From the NCBI GenBank assembly GCA_023150835.1, contig JAKLKB010000001.1:1-64000 (forward strand): a DNA stretch of 64,000 bases, written 5' to 3'. Under the pieces are notes generated by a model, which saw nothing but the letters and a program-made list of their open reading frames with translations, was not told the DNA's origin and did no database searches. Source of the stretch: Myxococcota bacterium. Lineage in GTDB: Bacteria > Myxococcota_C > UBA6777. Positions 14,728 to 57,141 of the stretch are shown here, one piece after another. Each line of letters starts with the position of its first letter. The first letter of the stretch is position 1. The translations under genes and the position numbers were made by a program.

Positions 14728-15900
14728 TTACCATCCCGAACCCATCCACGGCACACACCGCCCATGGCCATCACAACGCGTCTCTTTGGCGCATACCGAA
14801 ACACAGCGTCTGAGGCGTGCGTCAAACCGCATACAACGTATCTGCAAACAAACTTGCCCATGCACACAGCGCCCTTGCACGCACCGCTGGTTCTCAAAGC
14901 AAAGGGGTACACAGCGCTTTTGTCGGACATCATAACGCAAGCACTGCGTCCGTGGGCAACGCACCCTCAGCGGCAAACAACGCCCTTCTCCATCACAGCG
15001 CGTATGAGCAGGGCAGATCACGGTACATCGGTTTTGTTGTTTGTCGAGGTGCGAACAGTCTTGCCAACGACACAAGAGAGGCGGCGAACGTCTCAATGGA
15101 GCGATGGCAGGCGATAAAGGGCGCAATGTCGGCGGCGTAGAGGGATTTGTCGAAGTGGAGGGGTTAGTCGAAGTGGAAGGATCGGTCGAAGTGGAGGGGT
15201 TAGTCGAAGTGGAAGGATTTGTCGAAGTGGAAGGATTTGTCGAAGTGGAAGGATTTGTCGAAGTGGAAGGATTTGTCGAAGTGGAGGGATTTGTCGAAGT
15301 GGAGGGGTTGGTCGAAGTGGAGGGGTTGGTCGGAGATTCAACCGGGGTCCCAAGACGTGGGGGAGAGCGTCGGGTTGCGCCGAGACGTCGGCAACGCCCC
15401 AACGTGCAGCGAGTTCCGTTTTGGCAGTGCGAGCGACAAAGTCGCAAGGTCGGATCCCATCGCAAACATTCGGCTGGATCGCATAGAAGCGCGCCGCTTC
15501 CTTCGGTGCATCGGTCTTCTGCGCACTTAAGTGAGCAGCACTCTTGAGCTCGTGAGCATCTTTCCCCTGTGGAGCGGCACGAACCACCACAGCGGCTTTC
15601 TGTGCAATGCGCCTGACAGCACTCGCTGCCTTGTGTGCAGGGGTATCCTTCGGGGCGACAAAACGCCGTACAGATGCCTTTTCGGCACGAAAGCTCTCCG
15701 CAGCAAGGTTGGTTGGGCTTGCACGTTTTCCCTTCGGCGCGGCACAGCGGAGCGCTAGATGCGTTGTATGTTCCCATCCACGCTCCCAACAACCATATCG
15801 CAAACAGGGCGCGTAGGATCGCCTGCGCTCTCCATCTGTTCGAAGATTTTGCAACATAAGTTTTGTGGATGCGCCCCCTCCCGTCGATGTGTGCTGACAT
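14728..15900 (-). CDS. Secreted Cys-rich protein with Ser-Thr-Asn-Pro repeat linker
   Basis: About 390 residues from the ATG at 15900; a longer frame to 15972 exists. A hydrophobic segment (AILRALFAIWLLGAW) gives a signal peptide. The N-terminal part is dense in Cys pairs with Dickkopf- or toxin-like spacing (CCGELSC, GSECCQAHC, AQECCSLKC). A 5-residue S-T-N-P-S/T repeat tract follows, then three to four Cys modules of the form C-x3-[DQR]-C-x7-C-x3-C (CRWQDCSHLD, CPRTQCLRYD, CLQIRCMRFD). It is probably a disulfide-rich exported surface protein. Function is unknown. Confidence 0.75.
   Translation of the reverse strand: MSAHIDGRGRIHKTYVAKSSNRWRAQAILRALFAIWLLGAWMGTYNASSAPLCRAEGKTCKPNQPCCGELSCRKGICTAFCRPEGYPCTQGSECCQAHCTESRCGGSCRSTGERCSRAQECCSLKCAEDRCTEGSGALLCDPAECLRWDPTLRLCRSHCQNGTRCTLGRCRRLGATRRSPPRLGTPVESPTNPSTSTNPSTSTNPSTSTNPSTSTNPSTSTNPSTSTNPSTSTNPSTSTDPSTSTNPSTSTNPSTPPTLRPLSPAIAPLRRSPPLLCRWQDCSHLDKQQNRCTVICPAHTRCDGEGRCLPLRVRCPRTQCLRYDVRQKRCVPLCFENQRCVQGRCVHGQVCLQIRCMRFDARLRRCVSVCAKETRCDGHGRCVPWMGSGW
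15125..15335. repeat. 15-bp tandem repeat, about 14 copies
   Basis: The unit GTCGAAGTGGA[AG]GG[AG]TT (plus strand) is repeated head-to-tail with point differences. On the minus strand it encodes the S-T-N-P-S linker of the 14728 gene. Confidence 0.95.
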
Positions 15901-21996: not shown

Positions 21997-22080
21997 ACCA
22001 AACCTGTGTTTTTGCGTTAGCGCGTACTCTGCTTTGATCCTTTGTTCTTTGCTTCTGTGATACCGAAAAAGGAGTTCCCC

Positions 22081-23673
22081 GTGACCCACAAAAACGCCTT
22101 TTTGCAAGCCATTCAAAAGCGCGACTTCTTTACGGAAAACGGTGCGCTTTCGCATTCCACGACGGGTTCTTCGTTGGTGGATTATTTCGCGAAGTGCGGC
22201 ACATACCGAGATCGAAGTGAGAACGAAGTGTTTGCGGATATCTCGGCGATGTGGGCGGACTCTCCGTTGGTTGCGCTGATGATCATCTTTTATGTTCGCT
22301 TGATCACGCGCACCACGCAGGGCTTTTTTACTTCGGAGTTGGTGCAAAAAGGGCAGGGGGCTCGTGACGAGTTCCGCAAAGCCTTGCGTTGGCTTGCTAT
22401 CTCGCAACCAGAAACCTTGTACAAAAACGTGTGGTTGGTGCCTGTGGTCGGGCGCTGGAGCGATCTATGGCATGACGATCTGATCGATGTGCTCGATCGT
22501 TCCAAGGTGTATGCGTTGGTTCAACGCGGGCTTGCCGACGATACGATGCGCGGCTTGATCGCCAAATATCTCCCGCGTATCCGCAGCAAAGGAAGCGTTC
22601 ATACACCCCGCCATACGGCCCGAAACAATTGGGCGCGTGGATTTTGCAAAGTGATGGGATGGAATGATGCAGCATATCGCCTATTCAAGGCCTCTCCTGA
22701 GCATAACGCGCATCTCTTCCAACGTCAGATGAGTGCGGGTTTATGGGACGCTTTGGATTTTTCCAAGATCCCGGGACGTGCGCTGTTTCAGATGATCTCC
22801 CATCAAGGCAAGGACGCAAAGACCACGCTCGAACGCCACGATCTCAGCGAGCGCTATCTTGCATGGATCAGCCAACAGCCGACCGCAAAGTTCACGGGTT
22901 ATGTGTACGAGTTGTTCCAAGCGGCCAACAGGCGTCTCTCTATCGCACAGAAATATACCTACGATCGCCAATTCGACGGATTGATCGAGCAAGCCAAACG
23001 CGATCACGGTGGCTTTCAAGGCAACGTCTGGTGCGCCCTCGATACTTCGGGATCGATGCAAGCTGAAGCTGCGCCCGGTGTGACGGCGTTCGAGATCTGT
23101 CTTTCTTTGGGGATCTTCTTTTCCACGCTCAACGAAGGTGCATTCCATGATGTGGTGGTGATGTTTGACAGCACCTCGCGGATCAAAACTCTCAAGGGTG
23201 GTTTTTCCGATAAAGTCTCGCAACTCACCAGCGCAACCACCGCGTGGGGTTCGACCAGCTTTCAATCCGTAATCGACGAGATCGTTCGCGTTCGCCTAGA
23301 AGATCCGCAGATCCCCGTGGCAGATTTCCCGCAAACGCTGGTTGTGGTCAGCGATATGCAGTTTAACCCCGTTGATGGGGGAAATGCGCAAACTAATTAC
23401 GAAGCCGCGATGCAAAAGCTCGCAGCCGTCGGACTCCCGAAGATCCGCATTGTTTGGTGGTGGGTCACTGGACGTGGACAAGACTTCCCTTCCACCCTTG
23501 ACGACGAAGGCGTCACGATGATCGGCGGCTTTGATGGGAGCGTCTTGACTCTCTTGCTTGGTGGACAACCCAAACCTCTCAGCCTCGGGGAAAAAGAGTC
23601 CGCAAAAGCCAACGCTTTCGATCAGATGCTCCAAGCCCTCGATCAAGAAGTGTTGCGACAGCTTCGCGTGTGA
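22081..23673 (+). CDS. DUF2828 / TROVE (Ro60)-like RNA-binding protein with vWA domain
   Basis: 530 residues. The GTG start at 22081 has AAGGAG 6 nt upstream. Residues 1-300 are an all-helical HEAT-like region with the DUF2828 blocks TENGALSHSTTGSSLVDYFAKCG, KALRWLAISQPETLYKNVWLVPVVGRWSDL and MSAGLWDALDFSKIP. Residues about 316-500 form a von Willebrand A domain with an intact MIDAS (DTSGSM at 321-326) and VVVSDMQF. This architecture is the same as Ro60/TROVE proteins, ring-shaped binders of misfolded RNA and Y RNAs. Two tRNA-like genes with altered anticodon arms follow at 23864 and 24042, with one family B element between. This suggests an RNP partner role, which is inference. Confidence 0.85.
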   Translation: MTHKNAFLQAIQKRDFFTENGALSHSTTGSSLVDYFAKCGTYRDRSENEVFADISAMWADSPLVALMIIFYVRLITRTTQGFFTSELVQKGQGARDEFRKALRWLAISQPETLYKNVWLVPVVGRWSDLWHDDLIDVLDRSKVYALVQRGLADDTMRGLIAKYLPRIRSKGSVHTPRHTARNNWARGFCKVMGWNDAAYRLFKASPEHNAHLFQRQMSAGLWDALDFSKIPGRALFQMISHQGKDAKTTLERHDLSERYLAWISQQPTAKFTGYVYELFQAANRRLSIAQKYTYDRQFDGLIEQAKRDHGGFQGNVWCALDTSGSMQAEAAPGVTAFEICLSLGIFFSTLNEGAFHDVVVMFDSTSRIKTLKGGFSDKVSQLTSATTAWGSTSFQSVIDEIVRVRLEDPQIPVADFPQTLVVVSDMQFNPVDGGNAQTNYEAAMQKLAAVGLPKIRIVWWWVTGRGQDFPSTLDDEGVTMIGGFDGSVLTLLLGGQPKPLSLGEKESAKANAFDQMLQALDQEVLRQLRV

Positions 23674-23863: not shown

Positions 23864-23974
23864 GGATGGGTCGTCTAGTGGTAGGACACCGGAAACAAGC
23901 GTGCTTTGTACAAAGCACCACAGCAACACCAAAAACTCACGCCGGTAACGGAGGTTCGATTCCTTCCCTGTCCG
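23864..23974 (+). tRNA. tRNA-like gene (Glu-type body) interrupted in the anticodon arm
   Basis: 111 nt where 71 are expected. Acceptor strands are GGATGGG (23864) and CCTGTCC (23967) with two G-T pairs. T8, the D-arm GTCTAGTGGTAGGAC, the variable TAAC and the T-arm GGAGG-TTCGATT-CCTTC are all canonical; CCA is not encoded. The anticodon stem pairs four bases (CCGG/CCGG), but about 40 extra nt separate the strands. These include a perfect palindrome (23901-23918) followed by CACAGCAA, the same block as in the next gene. The 3' side reads CTC-A-C-G as in tRNA-Glu(CTC), yet no T33 is adjacent on either side. Excising 40 nt between the two AAAC repeats (23893 and 23933) would restore length. It could be an intron-bearing tRNA, a Y-RNA-like mimic, or a disrupted gene. 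Confidence 0.75.
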
Positions 23975-24041: not shown

Positions 24042-24149
24042 GGAGAAGTAGCTCAGTTGGTAGAGCAATGATCATGTGTGTCTTGTACAAGACACCACAG
24101 CAAACCTTTTGGCATTCATGGGTCGCGGGTTCGAACCCCGCCTTCTCCA
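24042..24149 (+). tRNA. tRNA-like gene interrupted in the anticodon arm, second copy
   Basis: 108 nt where 73 are expected. The acceptor GGAGAAG/CTTCTCC is perfect (7 bp). TA at 8-9, D-arm GCTC-AGTTGGTA-GAGC, variable GGGTC and T-arm GCGGG-TTCGAAC-CCCGC are canonical. Discriminator A; CCA is not encoded. The anticodon stem pairs ATGA with TCAT, interrupted by about 35 extra nt. These contain a perfect palindrome (24078-24095) plus CACAGCAA. Counting back from the 3' stem strand gives TGG at 34-36 but C at 37 and no certain T33, so the amino acid is unresolved. It lies 67 nt after the first copy, probably in one transcript. Confidence 0.75.
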
Positions 24150-54460: not shown

Positions 54461-55330
54461 TCAGCGAGCCTTAAAGCCGAATGCACCAGCAAGATAATCT
54501 TGAATTCCTTGGCAAGTGGCGTTGATGGCCGTCACACCTTGCTCCACATCGCGACCAACAGGACGGCGCAGCGGGCGCTCACCCTCACGTTCCACTTCTT
54601 CAACGAGAGCCGCAACCACTTCAGAAGGATCGCCCAATCCACCGGCTTTTGCACGTTCTTCAAAAGCTCCACCGAATGCTTTGAAGATCTCTGTGGTTTG
54701 GCCGTACTCAGCGGAGATATCGCGTTGAGGGAACAACGAGTTGGTGAGGAAGGTGGTTCCGTACGCGCCCGGCTCAACGATCACGCTTTGGATGCCGAGA
54801 GGTGAAAGCTCGTAGTGTGCGCTTTCTGCGTAGCCTTCCACAGCAAACTTGCTGGCCCCATAGATCCCCATAAACGGAAAGACGATCCGCCCCAACCCCG
54901 AACTGATGTAGATCACCAGACCTTTTCCAGAAGCCCGAAAATGCGGCATCACCGCATGGTTCATCCGCATCACGCCAAACACGTTGATGTCAAAGATCTG
55001 TTGGGCTTGTTCGATGGAAAAGGCTTCATCGATCCCCCATGTACCGACACCTGCGTTGTTGATCAACACATCGATCCCACCGAGAGCTACCGCTTGCGAA
55101 ACGGCTTTTTCCACCGAGGACGGATCGGTCACATCCAGTTCCAACACATGCACGCGGCGACCCTGCTCTGCCGCCCACGAACGAAGCGCCTCTGCTTTTG
55201 CAGCGTTTTTGCCCGTCACACCGCGCATCGTTGCGTAAACGGTATGGCCTTTTTGAGCCAACGCTTTGACAACATCAAAACCAAACCCAGCACTCGCACC
55301 CGTGATCAACACACGCTTTGCGTTATTCAT
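54461..55330 (-). CDS. Short-chain dehydrogenase/reductase
   Basis: 289 residues; AGGAG is well placed before the ATG. The classical SDR layout is complete: TGASAGFG (NAD(P)-binding glycine motif, residues 10-17), LDVTD, NNAGVG, and the catalytic Ser-Tyr-Lys as ISSGLG..YGASKFAVEGYAES. The PGAYGT segment after the catalytic site matches oxidoreductases acting on retinol-, steroid- or fatty-type alcohols, but the substrate is unknown. It lies alone, with the tRNA-like cluster upstream. Confidence 0.9.
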   Translation of the reverse strand: MNNAKRVLITGASAGFGFDVVKALAQKGHTVYATMRGVTGKNAAKAEALRSWAAEQGRRVHVLELDVTDPSSVEKAVSQAVALGGIDVLINNAGVGTWGIDEAFSIEQAQQIFDINVFGVMRMNHAVMPHFRASGKGLVIYISSGLGRIVFPFMGIYGASKFAVEGYAESAHYELSPLGIQSVIVEPGAYGTTFLTNSLFPQRDISAEYGQTTEIFKAFGGAFEERAKAGGLGDPSEVVAALVEEVEREGERPLRRPVGRDVEQGVTAINATCQGIQDYLAGAFGFKAR

Positions 55331-55745
55331 CGAAAACTCCTGTGGAATGAGGCTTCGCTGCGTTACAAAAAACGCAGACCGCGTAGAGGTTTACTTAAAC
55401 ACCATCACATCACAAGTGACATCTCTGTGAAAAAGATCCCCCAAACCACGACCCACACAAACAGCAAAGCCCACACAAGCAACGAAAGCAGAAGAGAAGA
55501 AACGAAAGGAAGAGAGCGGAGGGGGAAGGCCAGCCGAGAGGCCAAGCGTCAGGGGTTTGTGGATCGTGAAGGGAGACCGAGGCATCGAACGGTTTCTTGT
55601 CTGCCGCATGGCTCTCGAAAGAGCGAACACACGGGAAGAAAAGAAAGATCGGATGCACTTTGCGACCACAACAGCCCACCACGCACCGCGTCTGCCCGCG
55701 TCTTCGGCTGGCTTACCACTCCAAGGAACCAAAAAGGAGGTTGTT
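55331..55745. other. Intergenic stretch between the SDR and the tRNA-like cluster
   Basis: About 415 bp without a convincing gene. A hairpin CTGCGTT-(6 nt)-AACGCAG lies at 55358-55377, in the SDR leader. The rest is purine-rich (AAGCAGAAGAGAAGAAACGA) and shows no conserved structure I can name. Reading on from the permuted Asn-like 5' half, no T-arm or acceptor partner is found here. Confidence 0.5.
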
Positions 55746-55821
55746 TCTGATTAACAGTCAGATGCTCTACCCACTGAGCTATGAAGGCTTACGCCTTCAC
55801 TGGGAGTCGAACCCAGGACCC
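55746..55821 (-). tRNA. Circularly permuted tRNA-Asn(GTT)-like gene
   Basis: In transcription order the 3' part comes first: variable GGGTC, T-arm CTGGG-TTCGACT-CCCAG and acceptor TGAAGGC (55821 down to 55793). A 4-nt linker GTAA follows, then the 5' part: acceptor GCCTTCA, TA, D-arm GCTC-AGTGGGTA-GAGC, A26, and a complete anticodon arm TCTGA-CTGTTAA-TCAGA (55788 down to 55746). The two acceptor strands pair over all 7 bp. Joined at the variable region, the parts give a 72-nt cloverleaf with a textbook Asn anticodon loop (C-T-GTT-A-A) and G as discriminator from the linker. No alternative 3' half follows and no alternative 5' half precedes. Confidence 0.75.
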
Positions 55822-55828
55822 TTTGAGG

Positions 55829-55904
55829 CCAGTCGCTCTGCCGCTGAGCTACGGAGGTTTTGGGCCTCCGCCGGGACTCGAACCCGGGACCCACTGAAGC
55901 AAAA
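55829..55904 (-). tRNA. Circularly permuted tRNA-like gene (possible TTG anticodon)
   Basis: 3' part first: TTTTGCT loop segment, stem strand TCAGT, variable GGGTC, T-arm CCGGG-TTCGAGT-CCCGG and acceptor CGGAGGC (55904 down to 55864). A 5-nt linker CCAAA follows, then the 5' part: acceptor ACCTCCG (6 of 7 pairs), TA, D-arm GCTC-AGCGGCA-GAGC, G26 and stem strand ACTGG (55858 down to 55829). ACTGG pairs with TCAGT (one G-T), so the break lies in the anticodon loop. Counting from the 3' strand gives TTG at 34-36 with C at 37, which is atypical. It is 7 nt upstream of the Asn-like unit. Topologically it also resembles YrlA-type Y RNAs, whose ends lie at the anticodon position. Confidence 0.7.
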
Positions 55905-55925
55905 GTCGTTGATGTTCCTCGATAT

Positions 55926-55966
55926 GCGGGACACGCAGTCCTGATTTGTGAGTCTCTGCGTGCCGC
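55926..55966 (-). other. Stable hairpin just upstream of the permuted tRNA-like genes
   Basis: CACGCAG pairs with CTGCGTG, extended by GCGG/CCGC with a 2-nt bulge, around a 17-nt loop. It begins about 20 nt upstream of the first permuted unit on the minus strand. It could be a leader structure, part of a Y-RNA-like transcript, or a transcription signal. No U-run. Confidence 0.5.
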
Positions 55967-56043: not shown

Positions 56044-57141
56044 TTATTTGCGAAAGAGGGGGAGGATATCTTGGAAGGCGGCATCGACGGTGCGATCGAC
56101 GGGCAAGATCCGCCGAGGCATCGGCTCGAAAGGAGAAGAAACGGTCTCGACGTGTTGGGGAACATCATGGGAAACAACGGGGAGTTTCCCACGGGATGAG
56201 GAGGATGCGTGATGCGGCGGGGGTGGTGTTCGTTGTTCGTGCGATGGATGGGGTGTGGAGAAAGGGCGTTCGCTCAAGGCCGCGTGTTCGCTCAAGGCCG
56301 TGCGAAGATCGCCTTGGGACGGGTTTTTGTTTGAGGAGAAGGAAGAAGCCGCAGCTTGTTTGTGAGCAAACACAGCACGCAAGGCTTGAAGTTGATCGAA
56401 GTGTTTGACGGCAGCATCAGGATCGCAGAAAGTCGCCATCGGATCGACGTTTTGGATAGCGTTACTTTGGGGGGCGGGGGTAGGCGACTTTTTCAATTCG
56501 TGAGCGAGTTGGCGTAGGCTTGATTCGATGGTTTCTTCGCTGAGGTTTTGAAGGCGATGCGAGGCGGTGGACACAAGCGGCTGAGGGAGAGTCTCTGCAA
56601 AAGGCGGTTGTGGCGACTTGTTGTGTGCAGAAAGGGCTGCAAATTGAGCGCGTTTTTCAGGAGAAAAAGCAACCTGATCACCCGGGAAGATCGGCTTCTC
56701 TTTGGGGACGGGTTGTGTGTCGTCGTGCGAAGGTCCAAAGAAGCCGTCGATCTCCGCGCTGAGATCCCACGAAAGCGAAAGAACCTCTTTGGAAGAAACG
56801 GAAGGAGCGAAGGGACGGGGGGTTTCTTGGAGCAGATCAAGCGGCGGGATCTCTTTGGGTAGCCAAGAGAGTGAAAGCGAGTGTGGATCGTCGATCTTTT
56901 GGGGTGGAGTGTGTTTTTGAGTAAGAGTCTGATCGAGGGCCTGTTTTTGAGCAAGCGTCTGATCGAGTGCCTGTTTTTGGGCGACGGCTTGATCGAGCGC
57001 GGTTTGTAGCTGGAGGATGCGTGCTTCGGCTTGTTGGAGGCGTTGTTGTGCGCGGCGCAGTTGGGAGGTGAGTTGTTCGATATCTTGGGGGAATTCGAGG
57101 GCATTGGGGTTGGGCGTATGGAAGGCATTCATGGCATTCAT
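56044..57141 (-). CDS. Coiled-coil, low-complexity protein of unknown function
   Basis: 365 residues. Residues 18-75 form a coiled coil with heptad-like Leu/Ala/Gln (IEQLTSQLRRAQQRLQQAEARILQLQTALDQ) and two copies of QKQALDQTLA. The rest is Pro/Ser/His-rich with a few helical patches (TIESSLRQLAHELKK, AAVKHFDQLQALRAVFAHKQAAA). No signal peptide, membrane helix or known domain. The start has only a weak AAGAGAAA site. It is probably a cytosolic structural or adaptor protein. Confidence 0.65.
   Translation of the reverse strand: MNAMNAFHTPNPNALEFPQDIEQLTSQLRRAQQRLQQAEARILQLQTALDQAVAQKQALDQTLAQKQALDQTLTQKHTPPQKIDDPHSLSLSWLPKEIPPLDLLQETPRPFAPSVSSKEVLSLSWDLSAEIDGFFGPSHDDTQPVPKEKPIFPGDQVAFSPEKRAQFAALSAHNKSPQPPFAETLPQPLVSTASHRLQNLSEETIESSLRQLAHELKKSPTPAPQSNAIQNVDPMATFCDPDAAVKHFDQLQALRAVFAHKQAAASSFSSNKNPSQGDLRTALSEHAALSERPFSTPHPSHEQRTPPPPHHASSSSRGKLPVVSHDVPQHVETVSSPFEPMPRRILPVDRTVDAAFQDILPLFRK

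What the first reader, a model, noticed from the sequence alone, without database searches (positions are those of the whole stretch)
55746..55904. Two adjacent circularly permuted tRNA-like genes in a bacterial-type genome
On the minus strand, two tRNA 3' parts each precede a 5' part whose acceptor strand is complementary: TGAAGGC-(GTAA)-GCCTTCA over 7 bp, and CGGAGG-(linker)-CCTCCG over 6 bp. D-arms, T-arms, T8 and G18G19 are canonical. The downstream unit contains a perfect Asn anticodon arm (CTGTTAA) and breaks in the variable region; the upstream unit breaks in the anticodon loop. Adjacent ordinary tRNAs have no reason to show this complementarity, and reading the middle section as an ordinary tRNA leaves it 5 nt short in the anticodon arm. 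Permuted tRNA genes are known from some algae and archaea; I know of none established in bacteria. A tRNA-shaped, permuted layout is also that of YrlA-type Y RNAs.
Basis: partly seen in the sequence, partly recalled or inferred. Interest (0 to 1): 0.93.

Follow-up and report, generated by a model that had tools for sequence, protein, structure and literature searches.

The report
Tandem permuted tRNA-shaped Y-like RNA
This stretch of a bacterial genome carries two tRNA shapes written back half first, side by side; they are likely one small scaffold RNA of the Y-RNA type, predicted to work with a Ro60-like ring protein, rather than two tRNA genes, and the same layout turned up beside Ro60-type genes and beside an unstudied phage gene.

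Summary
On the minus strand, 55896-55746, two units each run 3' half, short linker, 5' half, with complementary acceptors (6 and 7 pairs), canonical T- and D-arms and, in unit 2, an intact Asn-type anticodon arm. A same-genus genome keeps it (10 substitutions in 282 columns, no indel). Permuted tRNA genes are the weaker reading: ordinary tRNA-Asn genes exist and no tRNA-splicing endonuclease was found (0 of 5 phylum genomes). Rfam's YrlA (Y RNA) model matches both units, but below its curated score, and it also rings on ordinary tandem tRNAs. The same module lies just upstream of a Ro60-fold gene in G004 and of a TROVE gene in G330, and downstream of DUF7873 genes in 12 of 12 fetched phage and plasmid regions (of 77 records), usually as a pair. 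Best reading: a two-module YrlA-like RNA. Expression, binding and function are inferred. No Ro60-type gene adjoins this copy; one with a Ro60-like model (DUF2828) lies 32 kb away. New variant of a known kind.

The parts
55932..55962 (-). hairpin just upstream of the RNA (CACGCAG...CTGCGTG); possibly part of the transcript
   Evidence: sequence; folds; in G001 one arm base differs, giving a G-T in place of a G-C
55914..55921 (-). 5' strand of the possible closing stem CGAGGAAC
   Evidence: pairs with 55729-55722 in the minimum-energy fold and in the stated structure
55864..55896 (-). unit 1, 3' half: CAGT strand, T-arm, acceptor 3' strand CGGAGGC
   Evidence: sequence; YrlA model 35.8 bits over 55895-55831; detector
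55859..55863 (-). unit 1 linker CCAAA closing the acceptor stem
   Evidence: sequence
55830..55858 (-). unit 1, 5' half: acceptor 5' strand ACCTCCG, D-arm, ACTG strand
   Evidence: sequence; YrlA model
55817..55829 (-). inter-module stretch GCCTCAAAGGGTC; can pair with GACTTTT upstream or form a hairpin; also the variable region of unit 2
   Evidence: folds
55793..55816 (-). unit 2, 3' half: T-arm and acceptor 3' strand TGAAGGC
   Evidence: sequence; YrlA model 32.0 bits over 55820-55764
55789..55792 (-). unit 2 linker GTAA (ATGC in G001)
   Evidence: sequence
55746..55788 (-). unit 2, 5' half: acceptor 5' strand GCCTTCA, D-arm, intact Asn-type anticodon arm (GTT at 55755-55753)
   Evidence: sequence; in-silico joined halves called tRNA-Asn(gtt) by ARAGORN
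55722..55729 (-). 3' strand of the possible closing stem GTTCCTTG
22042..23673 (+). DUF2828/DUF7788 protein, Ro60-like predicted fold; candidate protein partner (inferred, 32 kb away)
   Evidence: Pfam; model pLDDT 78.8; Foldseek top hits Ro autoantigen 1yvr E 1.2e-7 with TM 0.48, 2i91, 1yvp, Trove 9kop

Best explanation
The locus encodes two head-to-tail circularly permuted tRNA-shaped modules between two complementary flanking strands, and is most likely one small RNA of the Y-RNA (YrlA) type that is predicted to fold with both acceptor stems capped by short loops and would be bound by a Ro60-fold ring protein, rather than two tRNA genes. Shown by sequence and calls: order of the halves, acceptor complementarity, canonical T- and D-arms, the possible closing stem, conservation in a second genome without indels, and the same module beside Ro60-type genes in other genomes. 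[quoted passage not shown] The intact Asn-type anticodon arm of unit 2 could in addition present a bait to an anticodon nuclease; this is speculation. No partner is shown for this copy; the candidates are the DUF2828 protein in this window and the Ro60-like protein on contig C14.
For: Both modules match YrlA RF02553 (35.8 and 32.0 bits; G001 37.5 and 29.8). G004: a permuted module about 80 nt upstream of a Ro60-like gene, with a vWA gene and then a second Ro60-like paralog on its other side; the model of that family (pLDDT 85) has Ro60 as best solved match, 1yvp_A E 1.4e-11, TM 0.68, and Rsr 2nvo E 4.9e-11. G330: a module about 90 nt upstream of a gene with TROVE E 1.4e-14, with a CGA-CTGTTAA-TCG Asn-type hairpin in its 3' half; its YrlA score, 39.9, is also below Rfam's cut-off. 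G032: a module (45.6 bits) upstream of a vWA gene. Two-module permuted RNAs without ARAGORN tRNAs in G000:C64, G001:C306, G003:C3. G000 vs G001: 10 substitutions in 282 columns, no indel, none breaking a pair of the stated structure by eye; the wider 1508-column match, which includes this stretch, is 89%. A compact two-module copy, acceptors 7 of 7 and 6 of 7, in Microbacterium phage BAjuniper.
Against: Rfam's YrlA cut-off (69 bits) is not reached, and the model also rings on ordinary tandem tRNAs of this genome (38.9 bits, C34), so the score alone proves nothing. No Pfam TROVE match in G000, G001, G002, G003, G005 (G004 not in that call). No Ro60-type gene beside this copy; its neighbours are an SDR gene and a genus-specific coiled-coil ORF. 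The strongest Ro60-like match outside the phylum (G326) and the C14-type loci of G000, G001 and G003 have no permuted module detected in the 1.5 kb flanks. Unit 2 keeps a complete anticodon arm, and unit 1 has CCA directly after its acceptor. The free minimum-energy fold pairs the two D-arms with each other, and the stated structure is less stable (-64.4, or -70.5 with added pairs, vs -74.7 kcal/mol); fold stability is only modestly above shuffles (z -1.88). No consensus promoter. BAjuniper's copy sits in a tRNA array with no annotated Ro60.
Confidence: 0.7

Rival explanations
1. Two genuine circularly permuted tRNA genes, matured by circularisation and cleavage at the acceptor, as in some algae and one archaeon.
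For: Order of halves and acceptor pairing. In-silico joined unit 2 is called tRNA-Asn(gtt) by ARAGORN; unit 1 gives a tRNA for many junctions, but the anticodon depends on the junction chosen (62 of 73 joins called in all). Letters ACCA directly after the acceptor 3' strand in 7 of 14 first modules of DUF7873-linked RNAs (Ronaldo, D517 and RHph_Y65, where the detector found one module only, not counted), and CCA in unit 1 here. RtcB ligase in 4 of 5 phylum genomes.
Against: Ordinary-order tRNA-Asn genes exist. PF01974 splicing endonuclease in 0 of 5 genomes. No strict bulge-helix-bulge seen by eye at either junction. The sequence between the two modules of DUF7873-linked RNAs looks similar across phyla by eye, which a discarded leader or trailer need not be.
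Confidence: 0.1
2. Decayed or rearranged tRNA array: remnants of tandem duplicated tRNA genes whose outer halves were lost, without function.
For: Adjacent ordinary tRNAs, mostly of one isotype, do show acceptor complementarity (18 of 77 pairs reach 6 of 7); the middle stretch can be read as a short tRNA (30.5 bits); BAjuniper's copy lies among tRNAs.
Against: It would need the loss twice in a row; pairing kept in two genomes without indels; the same layout recurs in unrelated genomes beside Ro60-type and DUF7873 genes.
Confidence: 0.12
3. A relative of the DUF7873-linked two-module RNA whose partner is a DUF7873-type protein, not a Ro60-type one.
For: DUF7873 genes carry permuted modules 89-422 nt downstream in 12 of 12 fetched regions (of 77 records), two modules in 9 of 12 by the detector; own genome has such a locus at C64.
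Against: No DUF7873 gene near 55746 (own genome's only match is at C64); D-arm to next T-arm is 18 nt here against 87-139 nt in the 9 two-module records.
Confidence: 0.08

Closest known systems
YrlA / bacterial Y RNAs (Rfam RF02553), partner Rsr/Ro60
   Same: Permuted tRNA-like module: T-arm, acceptor stem capped by a loop, D-arm, enclosed by a stem; related modules lie beside Ro60-type genes in other genomes
   Different: Two modules in one locus, one with a complete Asn-type anticodon arm; below Rfam's cut-off; no Ro60 gene adjacent; Ro60-binding part of the model not covered by the local hits
Circularly permuted tRNA genes of algae and one archaeon (PMC3978253, passages seen)
   Same: 3' half upstream of 5' half with complementary acceptors
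   Different: Ordinary-order tRNA-Asn present, no splicing endonuclease found, no strict BHB by eye; related modules neighbour Ro60-type and DUF7873 genes
Two-module RNA downstream of DUF7873 genes in phages and bacteria (found here, no name known to me)
   Same: Two permuted tRNA-like modules in tandem
   Different: 87-139 nt between modules and a DUF7873 gene just upstream in the records fetched
Permuted (two-piece) tmRNA
   Same: tRNA-like ends permuted in the gene (recalled)
   Different: No anticodon arm in tmRNA (recalled); no tmRNA match here

Membership tests
YrlA / bacterial Y RNA | permuted tRNA-like module with capped acceptor stem, T- and D-arms | tested here: met
   Two modules
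YrlA / bacterial Y RNA | reaches Rfam RF02553 gathering score (69 bits) | tested here: not met
   35.8 and 32.0 bits; the module beside a TROVE gene in G330 also fails (39.9)
YrlA / bacterial Y RNA | Ro60-binding basal stem | tested here: inconclusive
   A closing stem is possible; local YrlA hits cover only model positions 23-85 and 27-81; whole-model hits score 35.8 (unit 1) and 36.4 (unit 2), 0 and 4.4 bits more
YrlA / bacterial Y RNA | encoded beside a Ro60 gene | tested here: not met
   Not at this copy; met for related modules in G004 and G330
YrlA / bacterial Y RNA | binds Rsr and PNPase, modified by tRNA enzymes | not testable with these tools
   Needs experiments; reported for Y RNA/YrlA in PMC8394870 (passages)
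Circularly permuted tRNA gene | 3' half precedes 5' half, acceptors complementary | tested here: met
Circularly permuted tRNA gene | bulge-helix-bulge at the junction | tested here: inconclusive
   No strict form seen by eye in unit 1 or 2; no BHB program available
Circularly permuted tRNA gene | tRNA-splicing endonuclease in the organism | tested here: not met
   PF01974 in 0 of 5 genomes, 4 archaeal controls positive
Circularly permuted tRNA gene | mature tRNA with joined halves, circular intermediate | not testable with these tools
   Needs RNA sequencing
Ro60 family (window 22042-23673 DUF2828 protein) | TROVE plus vWA fold | tested here: inconclusive
   Foldseek best matches are Ro60 structures, E 1.2e-7 but TM 0.48; no Pfam TROVE match

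The most novel reading that the evidence does not exclude
Genuine circularly permuted tRNA genes exist in bacteria and phages, often in tandem pairs, some with the CCA end encoded between the halves, and are matured by a pathway built on Ro60-like or DUF7873 proteins instead of a splicing endonuclease.
Probability: 0.08. Interest if true: 0.97.

Novelty: new variant of a known kind. Interest (0 to 1): 0.72.

Why it matters
If right, Y-RNA-type tRNA mimics are broader than the single-module YrlA model: double modules, modules with an intact anticodon arm, and partners beyond the Pfam TROVE family (DUF2828 and a large unnamed vWA family with a Ro60 fold, found also in cyanobacterial records). 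The recurrent pair of permuted modules downstream of DUF7873 in phages and actinomycete plasmids gives a ready handle: an RNA next to an unstudied gene in cultured phages, testable by RNA sequencing. It also warns that a permuted-tRNA search in bacteria may mostly return such RNAs.

Tried and rejected
Intron-split tandem tRNAs: rejected, because each 3' half pairs with the following 5' half. YrlA score as proof: rejected, because the model rings on ordinary tandem tRNAs. DNA similarity of the whole 202 nt in phages (22 records) and plasmids (89 records): none covers 80% of the query; of the 8 phage rows listed 7 lie on annotated tRNAs and one is BAjuniper, and the 8 plasmid rows listed cover only about 36-38 nt of unit 2's 5' half. 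Search with the BAjuniper copy: 19 other phage records, 16 of them on annotated tRNAs, and 6 plasmid records in a table without RNA genes; not followed further. One genome-collection scan with the DUF2828 protein gave 2 loci. DUF2828 and DUF7873 had no solved relatives by sequence. Literature: searches for two or tandem tRNA-like units with Y RNAs gave no paper holding such a phrase; no paper held DUF7873 and the four holding DUF2828 are plant papers (listing only). Chen 2014 and the Sim and Wolin review are not held, so a published two-module Y RNA may exist. PMC10085705 and PMC9569102: passages seen, nothing decisive.

Full report
WHAT IS THERE. On the minus strand, in the 713-base gap between a genus-specific coiled-coil ORF (56044-57141) and an SDR gene (54461-55330), two tRNA-like units follow each other, each as 3' half, short linker, 5' half. 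Acceptor strands pair 6 of 7 in unit 1 and 7 of 7 in unit 2; T- and D-arms are canonical; unit 2 ends in a complete Asn-type anticodon arm. Flanking strands 55921-55914 and 55729-55722 can close a stem of 8 pairs around both.

IS IT MORE THAN CHANCE. Among 142 distinct ordinary tRNAs in the loci then held, random ordered pairs reach 6 or more Watson-Crick acceptor pairs in 2.1% and 7 in 0.4%. The same order in G001, with 10 substitutions in 282 aligned columns, no indels and no broken pair of the stated structure by eye, against 89% over the 1508-column match that includes it and the upstream ORF, argues for a kept structure. With two genomes this is limited.

RELATIVES. A YrlA search over the five phylum genomes also rings on ordinary tandem tRNAs. 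Of the 30 loci returned, ARAGORN found no tRNA in 11; besides this locus they give permuted modules, read by eye, at six places: G001:C471 (ortholog), G000:C64 and G001:C306 (two modules each), G003:C3 (two), G003:C127 (one), G004:C41 (one). A detector (T-arm, acceptor pairing of at least 6 of 7, D-arm) run on all loci held found 16 distinct sequences in 684 kb of partly overlapping loci: 3 in ordinary tandem tRNAs, 1 doubtful (L149), 12 in places without ordinary tRNAs. Over 12 modules taken as independent (one, C3 unit 2, added by eye; four near-copies left out) acceptor cells pair in 81 of 84, slid controls in 28 to 39 of 84, with 2 to 4 standard pair types at 6 of 7 positions. Pairing was a criterion of selection, so 81 of 84 is partly circular; the variety of pair types is the informative part.

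LINK TO RO60. In G004 the module lies about 80 nt upstream of a gene of a large family, with a vWA gene and then a paralog of the first on the other side. The predicted fold of that family matches Ro60 as best solved structure (1yvp_A E 1.4e-11, TM 0.68; Deinococcus Rsr 2nvo E 4.9e-11). In G330 a module lies about 90 nt upstream of a TROVE gene. In G032 one lies upstream of a vWA gene. Searching that family in 386 genomes gave matches in 13; permuted modules were detected in the returned 1.5 kb flanks of 3 of them, G004, G032 and G330, and not in the others, including the strong match in G326. In our window a DUF2828 protein (22042-23673) has Ro60 structures as its best matches, at TM 0.48, but no permuted module was detected beside it.

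LINK TO DUF7873. C64, C306 and C3 lie beside DUF7873 genes. In 386 genomes, 7 matched and 6 were above cut-off; 5 of the 6 have permuted modules in the fetched flank, G335 has none. tblastn found DUF7873 in 73 phage and 4 plasmid records. I fetched 12 regions (8 of the 73 phage, all 4 plasmid): all 12 have at least one permuted module 89-422 nt downstream on the same strand, 9 of 12 two by the detector (a second one in Ronaldo is visible by eye); one further detection lies among ordinary tRNAs of NiceHouse. Reversed sequences of the same loci gave 1 detection and five sets of shuffles 2. The detector there allowed linkers up to 69 nt. In the 8 phage tables no RNA feature is listed at these places; in two (Ronaldo, D517) a small hypothetical CDS overlaps. 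The plasmid tables hold no RNA genes by design.

MECHANISM. YrlA is reported to have a basal stem held by Rsr and a tRNA-like domain that binds PNPase and is modified by tRNA enzymes (PMC8394870, passages); a decoy role against an anticodon nuclease has been suggested (PMC7790460, passages). By analogy I infer a linear RNA whose closing stem is held by a Ro60-like protein and whose two tRNA-shaped heads bind a tRNA-recognising partner. Nothing here shows transcription or binding, and no consensus promoter was found.

AGAINST PERMUTED tRNA GENES. Known permuted tRNAs are thought to depend on BHB cleavage by the splicing endonuclease (PMC3978253, passages). PF01974 was found in 0 of 5 genomes; RtcB in 4 of 5, not in G001. 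Ordinary-order tRNA-Asn genes exist. For the reading speak the joined unit 2, which ARAGORN calls tRNA-Asn, and ACCA after the first-module acceptor in 7 of 14 DUF7873-linked RNAs. I did not test whether ordinary tRNAs of the same phages encode CCA.

VERDICT. Observation confirmed; best filed as working like a YrlA-type Y RNA with two modules, not as a member of RF02553 (score and neighbour tests not met). New variant of a known kind. I cannot say that two-module Y RNAs are unpublished: key papers are not held.

Noticed in passing
window 23864-23974 and 24042-24149 (+), also G000:C193:28636-28752: tRNA-like genes (the first two Glu- and Met/Ile-like by eye, the third called Phe by ARAGORN with an intron allowed) with about 40-nt inserts in the anticodon loop, each with a palindromic hairpin around TTGTACAA followed by ACCACAGCAA; the window's two follow the DUF2828 gene directly. 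Two such lie beside DUF2828 in G001, two or three weaker ones in G003; a Flavobacteriales DUF2828 locus has a CACCTCAGCAA string downstream (L095).
   Followed up: partly
L174-L185 (phages and plasmids), G000:C64:15719-15949, G003:C3:571289-571553: RNA-like stretch with two permuted tRNA-like modules (one found in two records) just downstream of DUF7873 genes, with a similar-looking stretch between the modules across phyla by eye.
   Followed up: partly
G000:C14:14484-14700 and G003:C36 about 14925-15345 (L042, L049): Ordinary-order tRNA-like RNAs with an extended acceptor stem (GTGTACAAA ... TTTGTAAA) near a Ro60-like gene; ARAGORN calls some of them tRNAs.
   Followed up: partly
L126 4817-10427 (G004:C41): Same-strand row of two Ro60-like paralogs, a vWA protein, a ThiF-type protein and the permuted RNA.
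   Followed up: partly
L186 2991-3139 (Microbacterium phage BAjuniper): Compact two-module permuted unit inside a tRNA array, 47 of 59 identical to unit 1.
   Followed up: partly
G000:C34:14046-15573: Cluster of 12 tRNA genes, four of them Pro, several with lower scores.
   Followed up: no
G001:C471 and C484: The G001 assembly breaks near this RNA, with overlapping contig ends.
   Followed up: no
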